From Sipunculus nudus (lineage: Eukaryota > Annelida > Sipuncula > Golfingiida > Sipunculidae), in NCBI GenBank assembly GCA_026874595.1, contig CM049312.1, positions 26,591,956-26,655,955 of the forward strand: a DNA stretch of 64,000 nucleotides, given 5' to 3'. Both the position numbers and the translations under genes were made by a program. Each line of letters opens with the position of its first letter. Position 1 is the stretch's first letter. Of the stretch, positions 31,574-52,391 are shown one piece after another. A model generated the notes under the pieces. It ran no database searches. It was given only the letters and a program-made list of their open reading frames with translations, and had not been told where the DNA came from.

Positions 31574-31769
31574 ATGAAGATGTGGGTACCAGCAGGGTTG
31601 CTGGTGATCCTGGCCTGCTGCGCGGGAACCAGCGGTCTGTCTCAGGAAGTCTGTGACGTGTCGGAGCTGAGGAGTATGGGACCAAAGGACGCCACAGCGT
31701 ATATCGGACTTATGTACTCGCTACGGACGAAAGGGGATGGCACGGCGGGGTGTGGGCCTTATACGGACG
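31574..31769 (+). CDS. Receptor exon 1: signal peptide and start of flytrap 1
   Basis: The exon encodes MKMWVPAGLLVILACCAGTS, a short basic start plus a hydrophobic core and small residues that fit a signal peptide with cleavage near residue 21-22. It then gives the first strand of flytrap 1 (YIGLMYSLRTKG...GCG), equivalent to the GLFPVH...CG opening of mGluRs. The donor is GTACGT, phase 1. The second methionine (31580) has a slightly better -3 base and may be the true start. Confidence 0.85.

Positions 31770-52391: not shown

What the first reader, a model, noticed from the sequence alone, without database searches (positions are those of the whole stretch)
31574..52391. A class C GPCR with five Venus-flytrap domains in one chain
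Thirteen exons with matching phases join into about 2,824 residues: signal peptide, five mGluR-type ligand-binding domains, seven helices, tail. Named class C families (mGluR, CaSR, GABA-B, taste, V2R) carry one flytrap per chain, and GPRC5 has none. Five in tandem would allow several ligands, or very strong avidity or cooperativity, to drive a single 7TM. I know of no described family with this layout.
Basis: partly seen in the sequence, partly recalled or inferred. Interest (0 to 1): 0.92.

Follow-up and report, generated by a model that had tools for sequence, protein, structure and literature searches.

The report
Receptor with five flytrap sensors
One animal gene appears to encode a single G-protein-coupled receptor carrying five ligand-sensing "flytrap" domains in a row instead of the usual one, which would let one receptor weigh several chemical signals at once.

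Summary
Thirteen exons join to 2,824 residues: signal peptide, five mGluR-type Venus flytraps (PF01094, E 8e-50 to 5e-18), a class C 7TM (PF00003, 5e-42) and a tail. Exon structure argues for one gene: each of the five exons that follow a flytrap (6, 8, 9, 11, 12) begins with that flytrap's last strand and runs through a three-cysteine linker towards the next domain; all five junction introns are phase 0. The flytraps are 19-28% identical yet keep 35 of 35 canonical cysteines, so this is no recent or assembly duplication. Only flytrap 4 keeps the alpha-amino-acid pocket (with one D-to-E change); the Arg/Lys pair for glutamate's distal carboxylate is kept in none, and the NCD3G domain is absent, so this is not an mGluR. 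A single-flytrap paralogue (7TM 39% identical) lies head-to-head 39 kb away. In what I saw of ten literature searches, no class C receptor with several flytraps is described; bacterial BvgS-type kinases reach five. RNA evidence is missing; orthologues and phylum could not be tested. Verdict: new variant of a known kind; architecture very likely real, mechanism inferred.

The parts
31574..31769 (+). Exon 1: start, signal peptide (MKMWVPAGLLVILACCAGTSG), first part of flytrap 1
   Evidence: donor G|GTACGT, phase 1
32968..33081 (+). Exon 2: flytrap 1
   Evidence: alignment to mGlu3 runs across both splices; neither site passed the crude score
33513..33635 (+). Exon 3: flytrap 1, with dimer-loop cysteine C135 at about 33605
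34504..34670 (+). Exon 4: flytrap 1
35486..36394 (+). Exon 5: rest of flytrap 1 except its last strand
37304..37844 (+). 11-copy 49-bp minisatellite carrying copies of the exon 6 acceptor
37831..38082 (+). Exon 6: last strand of flytrap 1 (VGLY), linker 1 (3 Cys, 37933-37959), start of flytrap 2
38442..39653 (+). Exon 7: flytrap 2
40448..41881 (+). Exon 8: last strand of flytrap 2, linker 2 (3 Cys, 40535-40558), flytrap 3; a 0-0 exon of 478 codons
42379..42541 (+). Exon 9: last strand of flytrap 3, linker 3 (3 Cys, 42457-42483), start of flytrap 4
   Evidence: its acceptor did not pass the crude score
43400..44697 (+). Exon 10: flytrap 4, the one that keeps the alpha-amino-acid pocket
46395..47864 (+). 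Exon 11: last strand of flytrap 4, linker 4 (3 Cys, 46461-46490), flytrap 5 with dimer-loop cysteine C2087 (about 46785); a 0-0 exon of 490 codons
50453..51461 (+). Exon 12: last strand of flytrap 5 (IGKQ), linker 5 (3 Cys, 50552-50584), whole 7TM (about 50651-51391)
   Evidence: neither splice site passed the crude score
52264..52391 (+). Exon 13: cytoplasmic tail and stop
   Evidence: the least certain exon, supported by phase and acceptor only; without it the frame of exon 12 stops at 51497

Best explanation
One gene encodes one class C GPCR chain with a serial ectodomain: signal peptide, five units of flytrap plus three-cysteine linker, then a 7TM. Shown from sequence: the five flytraps, the linkers, the 7TM, compatible splice sites and the junction-spanning exons. 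Inferred: in each unit the conserved lobe-2 cysteine (C240 of mGlu3) pairs with a linker cysteine, so lobe 2 of flytrap n is tied to lobe 1 of flytrap n+1, and flytrap 5 is tied to the 7TM as the lone flytrap is in its single-flytrap sister. The receptor most likely works as a dimer, held by loop cysteines in flytraps 1 and 5; closure of the membrane-near pair (flytraps 4 and 5) drives the 7TM. Flytrap 4 is the likely binder of an alpha-amino acid or derivative other than glutamate. Flytraps 1 and 5 may bind related ligands; 2 and 3 act as allosteric, peptide-binding or spacing modules. The array arose by duplicating a symmetric phase 0-0 unit of 478-490 codons; flytrap 1 may have joined separately.
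For: Gene model: 12 of 12 GT-AG introns, matching phases, no stop in 8,475 nt. Five PF01094 and one PF00003. Five of five exons that follow a flytrap start with its last strand (VGLY, VGEY, VGSY, IGSY, IGKQ); one search aligns to mGlu3 through the exon 5/6 splice (YERVGLY against YLKVGHW). Units of 488, 478, 487 and 490 codons. The same phase-0 intron before the last strand in the single-flytrap neighbour (sequence). 35 of 35 canonical cysteines and 5 of 5 three-Cys linkers; loop cysteine in flytraps 1 and 5 only; pocket residues S,T,D,Y,E in flytrap 4. The 7TM keeps the TM3 cysteine and lysine and the TM6 glutamate and tryptophan aligned to mGlu7 or mGlu2. Crude hydrophobicity gives a signal peptide, then only two weak stretches inside flytrap 3 before the seven (eight windows, two overlapping) of 2513-2759.
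Against: No RNA or protein evidence. I picked splice sites partly to match phase, and 6 of 24 fell below my crude score. One signal-peptide-like ATG with a phase-0 donor lies in intron 8 (42231). Pocket residues in flytraps 1, 2, 3 and 5 are partly lost. The TM7 PKxY proline is arginine, and the ECL2 cysteine lies near the mGluR one but is not aligned with it. The last linker and the 7TM are joined by about 25 residues, not a rigid CRD. Ten decoy copies of the exon 6 acceptor could divert splicing. No structure could be predicted.
Confidence: 0.8

Rival explanations
1. Two genes: exons 1-8 encode a secreted protein with flytraps 1-3, and a second gene starting in intron 8 (ATG 42231) encodes a receptor with flytraps 4-5 and the 7TM.
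For: A signal-peptide-like ATG at 42231 with a phase-0 donor upstream of exon 9; none of the five junction introns gives one on the reverse strand. Read past its donor, exon 8 meets an in-frame stop 18 codons on, at 41936, so a flytrap 1-3 product could end there. Flytrap 4 is the best mGluR match and keeps the pocket.
Against: Such candidates occur by chance: 5 in 2 x 41.6 kb outside the gene (1 on plus, 4 on minus), so 0.2 (plus rate) to 0.4 (both) expected in 7.0 kb of junction introns. The intron would be 82 or 43 bp, against 359-2588 bp for the 12 of the model. The product would begin with the last strand of a flytrap that it lacks, and flytrap 3 would lose that strand.
Confidence: 0.06
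2. One gene, but the five-flytrap form is a minor product: because exons 6-7, 8, 9-10 and 11 are each phase 0-0 units, skipping gives one- to five-flytrap isoforms, and decoy acceptors in intron 5 give a soluble flytrap 1.
For: All five junction introns are phase 0 and the units are whole numbers of codons. Eleven copies of the exon 6 acceptor; only the last reads open into exon 6.
Against: No RNA evidence for skipping. All five modules keep every canonical cysteine and open frames, as expected if all are used.
Confidence: 0.1
3. Pseudogene or assembly artefact (collapsed tandem paralogues).
For: Clusters of class C receptor matches exist in this genome.
Against: No stop or frameshift in 8,475 nt; modules only 19-28% identical; no 7TM match between the modules; GC3 of 0.572.
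Confidence: 0.03

Closest known systems
Metabotropic glutamate receptors (mGluR, classes I-IV)
   Same: Best solved-structure match of all five flytraps (mGlu3 or mGlu7, E 1.3e-44 to 5.4e-23) and of the 7TM (mGlu7, 3.7e-19); same cysteine frame.
   Different: Five flytraps instead of one; no NCD3G domain; R78 lost in 5 of 5 flytraps and K409 in 5 of 5 (flytrap 1 has an arginine there); TM7 proline lost.
Neighbouring single-flytrap receptor at C7:26577543-26584102, minus strand (same genome)
   Same: 7TM 39% identical, a 3-Cys linker, same phase-0 intron before the last flytrap strand.
   Different: One flytrap with its own signal peptide; pocket residues mostly lost; PK motif kept in TM7.
BvgS/EvgS-type bacterial sensor kinases
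   Same: Tandem flytraps in one chain, one to five of them, driving one membrane output (PMC4352136, passages read).
   Different: Bacterial, kinase output; no homology tested. Analogy only.
Trypanosome receptor adenylate cyclases
   Same: Two flytraps on one chain in most members (PMC6027212, passages read).
   Different: Single TM helix and cyclase; not GPCRs.
GABA-B receptor
   Same: Flytrap and 7TM without NCD3G (layout from PMC12716839, passages).
   Different: One flytrap; no GABA-B chain among the 60 matches listed for any module or for the 7TM (lists capped at 60 of 64-97).
GPRC5D
   Same: 7TM matches at 4.2e-17.
   Different: No flytrap (recalled).

Membership tests
Class C GPCR | 7tm_3 domain (PF00003) over its curated cut-off | tested here: met
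   144.8 bits against 33.5
Class C GPCR | Extracellular flytrap (PF01094) | tested here: met
   five of five modules over the cut-off
Class C GPCR | One flytrap per chain in named families | tested here: not met
   five in one gene model; needs RNA
Class C GPCR | Couples to a G protein as a dimer | not testable with these tools
   loop cysteines in flytraps 1 and 5 would fit a dimer
mGluR | NCD3G cysteine-rich domain between flytrap and 7TM | tested here: not met
   no such Pfam match at E 0.01; 3-Cys linker instead
mGluR | Alpha-amino-acid pocket (S165, T188, D208, Y236, D318 of mGlu1; numbers and roles recalled) | tested here: inconclusive
   flytrap 4 S,T,D,Y,E; flytraps 1, 2, 3, 5 partly lost
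mGluR | Distal carboxylate residues R78 and K409 (recalled) | tested here: not met
   no flytrap has the pair; flytrap 1 has A and R, the others A/L/M/N-type and H/T/Y-type residues
GABA-B | Sequence nearest to GABA-B | tested here: not met
   best matches are mGluRs; no GABA-B chain in the capped lists
GPRC5 | 7TM without flytrap | tested here: not met
   five flytraps
BvgS-type tandem-flytrap sensor | Histidine kinase output | tested here: not met
   output domain is 7tm_3

The most novel reading that the evidence does not exclude
A modular multi-input receptor: one GPCR chain reads several ligands through a serial stack of flytraps, and the cell sets how many flytraps it carries (one to five) by skipping symmetric 0-0 exon units, with the 11-copy acceptor minisatellite in intron 5 tuning release of a soluble flytrap 1.
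Probability: 0.15. Interest if true: 0.92.

Novelty: new variant of a known kind. Interest (0 to 1): 0.78.

Why it matters
Class C receptors are the textbook case of one flytrap and one 7TM per chain, with signal integration done by pairing two chains. A five-flytrap chain would put integration into one polypeptide, and would test how a conformational signal crosses several flytraps and a short linker instead of the rigid cysteine-rich domain. The single-flytrap sister gene next door gives a ready control. The symmetric 0-0 exon units also give a simple route by which receptor ectodomains can grow.

Tried and rejected
Considered and set aside: tandem paralogues mistaken for one gene (junction-spanning exons speak against it); recent or assembly duplication (modules too divergent); a second multi-flytrap gene in the genome (searches with PF01094, PF00003, flytrap 4 and the 7TM, showed several flytrap matches in tandem before one 7TM match only here, as I read the lists; these six-frame searches see exons one by one, score only the best candidates, e.g. 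115 of 138, and could miss multi-exon cases). The five modules as one clade without the neighbour and the C8 exon is rejected (p-AU 0.007); flytraps 2-5 alone are not rejected (0.146); all seven sit on one side of a branch at 82/80, not starred, with long branches. So the order of duplications is unresolved.

Led nowhere: the animal's phylum (PF14830; COX1, hit mostly bacterial-looking contigs; a ferritin exon, best matched 6lpe, whose organism the tool does not name; myosin, never answered); the bacterial promoter scan, which does not apply to an animal gene; orthologues in other animals (no animal genomes held); structure prediction (switched off).

Literature: 10 of 10 searches used. In the titles, abstract openings and passages that I saw, no class C GPCR with more than one flytrap is described; most listed papers were not opened, and one search listed 15 of 69. 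Passages only were read of seven papers: PMC6267866, PMC12716839, PMC4302439, PMC4352136, PMC6307864, PMC6408891, PMC6027212; all others were seen as listings.

Full report
What was checked. The window lies at C7:26591956-26655955 of an unnamed 1.43 Gb genome. I rebuilt the gene from the DNA. Thirteen exons between 31574 and 52391 join to 8,475 nt and 2,824 residues without a stop; 12 of 12 introns are GT-AG and every phase matches. I chose the sites by homology and phase; 18 of 24 passed a crude splice-site score, while the acceptors of exons 2, 9 and 12 and the donors of exons 2, 8 and 12 did not. Pfam finds a flytrap (PF01094) in each of the five modules and a class C 7TM (PF00003) in exon 12; the whole-genome scans with the same models hit the same places, for flytrap 1 exons 4 and 5 only. 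The stop-free runs that hold exons 5, 7, 8, 10, 11 and 12 (348-531 aa) exceed the longest run in 300 Markov resamples of the region (231 aa), and CDS GC (0.508, GC3 0.572) stands out from the introns (0.359).

One gene or several. The exon structure is the main evidence. All five exons that follow a flytrap (6, 8, 9, 11, 12) begin with that flytrap's last strand (VGLY, VGEY, VGSY, IGSY, and IGKQ for exon 12), then a linker with three cysteines, then the next flytrap, directly or after one more intron, or the 7TM. The alignment of flytrap 1 to mGlu3 runs through the exon 5/6 splice. All five junction introns are phase 0, so the stretches exon 6+7, 8, 9+10 and 11 are symmetric units of 488, 478, 487 and 490 codons. 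A crude signal-peptide scan, which passes exon 1 and the neighbour gene, found nothing in the junction exons and 7 ATGs in the five junction introns, one of them with a usable donor (ATG 42231, intron 8); the reverse strand of the same introns gave 4 and 0. Outside the gene 5 such candidates with a donor occur in 2 x 41.6 kb (1 on plus, 4 on minus), which predicts 0.2 to 0.4 in the 7.0 kb of junction introns. Read past its donor, exon 8 stops 18 codons on (41936), so a product ending there is possible. Crude hydrophobicity shows a signal peptide, two weak stretches inside flytrap 3, and eight windows (two overlapping, so seven segments) in 2513-2759. I put the one-gene reading at about 0.9.

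What each module is. All five flytraps match mGluRs best among solved structures: mGlu3 1.6e-39, mGlu3 7.4e-43, mGlu3 5.4e-23, mGlu7 1.3e-44, mGlu3 4.8e-30. They are 19-28% identical to each other, yet keep seven of seven canonical cysteines each, 35 of 35. Each of the five linkers has three cysteines; modules 2, 3 and 4 with a linker hold ten cysteines, which would make five disulfides if one linker cysteine pairs with the lobe-2 cysteine as in mGluRs (pairing recalled, not tested). An extra cysteine in the loop that links mGluR dimers (role recalled) is present, in the aligned column, only in flytraps 1 and 5.

Ligand pockets. At the five positions that hold the alpha-amino-acid core in mGlu1 (numbers and roles recalled; columns from my alignment, and the pairwise alignments), flytrap 4 has S,T,D,Y,E; flytrap 1 S,A,E,Y,D; flytrap 5 T,S,S,Y,D; flytrap 3 T,T,H, an uncertain Y or K, D; flytrap 2 S,T,A,D,G. 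Of the two residues for glutamate's distal carboxylate, the arginine is lost in all five; the lysine is lost in all five, flytrap 1 having an arginine there. So flytrap 4 is the best candidate for an amino-acid sensor, glutamate is unlikely, and the other pockets have drifted or changed ligand.

The 7TM. Best matches are mGlu7 (3.7e-19) and other mGluRs; GPRC5D follows at 4.2e-17. Aligned to mGlu7 or mGlu2 it keeps the TM3 cysteine and lysine and the TM6 glutamate and tryptophan; a cysteine lies in ECL2 near the mGluR one but is not aligned with it; the proline of the TM7 PKxY motif is arginine (motif names recalled). No NCD3G match was found; about 25 residues separate the last linker cysteine from TM1.

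Relatives in the genome. A single-flytrap receptor lies upstream of the window on the minus strand (C7:26584102-26577543), head-to-head, 39 kb from start to start; it has its own signal peptide, a three-Cys linker and the same phase-0 intron before the last strand. Its 7TM is 39% identical; the next four matches, at 25-30%, are mGluR-like. A flytrap exon on C8 (58143452-58144880) groups with these, but no 7TM was found within 28 kb downstream. In a tree of 19 rows the five modules, the neighbour and the C8 exon lie on one side of a branch (82/80, not starred); the five modules alone are rejected as a clade (p-AU 0.007), flytraps 2-5 alone are not (0.146). Branches are long, so I claim only kinship, not order. 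In the lists I saw no other place with tandem flytraps before one 7TM.

How it most likely works. Shown: layout, compatible splice structure, conserved cysteines, several conserved signalling residues. Inferred: units are chained lobe 2 to lobe 1 through disulfide-braced linkers; the chain dimerises through flytraps 1 and 5; the membrane-near pair drives the 7TM as the lone flytrap does in the sister gene; outer modules add allosteric inputs or reach. PMC4352136 (passages) describes bacterial kinases with one to five flytraps, suggests that several flytraps let several signals be integrated, and argues that a compact stack suits inter-domain communication better than a linear one; that is the nearest working model, by analogy only, and its last point counts against a long linear chain.

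Novelty. The passages of PMC12716839 on class C architecture give an ANF domain with or without NCD3G, or a Cache domain, and mention no tandem ANF. In what I saw of ten searches (mostly listings) no multi-flytrap class C receptor is described. The library lacks most subscription papers, and protein databases with automatic gene models could not be searched, so an uncharacterised record of the same kind may exist. I file it as a new variant of a known kind.

Noticed in passing
window 37304-37844 (+): An 11-copy 49-bp minisatellite in intron 5 carries the exon 6 acceptor in each copy and runs 14 bp into exon 6. Only the last acceptor reads open into exon 6; the ten upstream copies shift frame or meet a stop, which would end the chain after flytrap 1.
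   Followed up: partly
G000 C7:26577543-26584102 (-), L007, L010; upstream of the window: Divergent single-flytrap class C receptor with a like linker and the same intron position, the likely sister of the five-flytrap gene.
   Followed up: yes
G000 C8:58143452-58144880 (+), L026, L035: A flytrap exon of the same group with a hydrophobic N-terminal stretch (the one start I tried failed my crude signal-peptide test) and no 7TM found within 28 kb downstream; a secreted flytrap or a gene with distant exons.
   Followed up: partly
G000 contigs C60-C89, L038, L039: Ten COX1-type matches with open frames of 489-578 aa; the two loci read (37-38% GC) carry near-identical bacterial cytochrome oxidase operons and seven more score alike, as if several strains of one bacterium were assembled with the animal. 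The nearest of the 80 species loci listed is 59% identical in CoxA. C135 also looks bacterial by eye.
   Followed up: partly
window 59396-62762 (-): Frames of a LINE-type element with reverse transcriptase (RVT_1 3.6e-7) and endonuclease (1.2e-7) matches.
   Followed up: no
window 49012-50111: A 338-bp tandem repeat, 3.2 copies, in intron 11.
   Followed up: no
G000 C2, C6, C10, C11, C12: Class C receptor genes, some clustered, whose flytrap and (by eye, in nine frames read) cysteine-rich region share one open frame of about 700-780 codons; a sizeable expansion.
   Followed up: no
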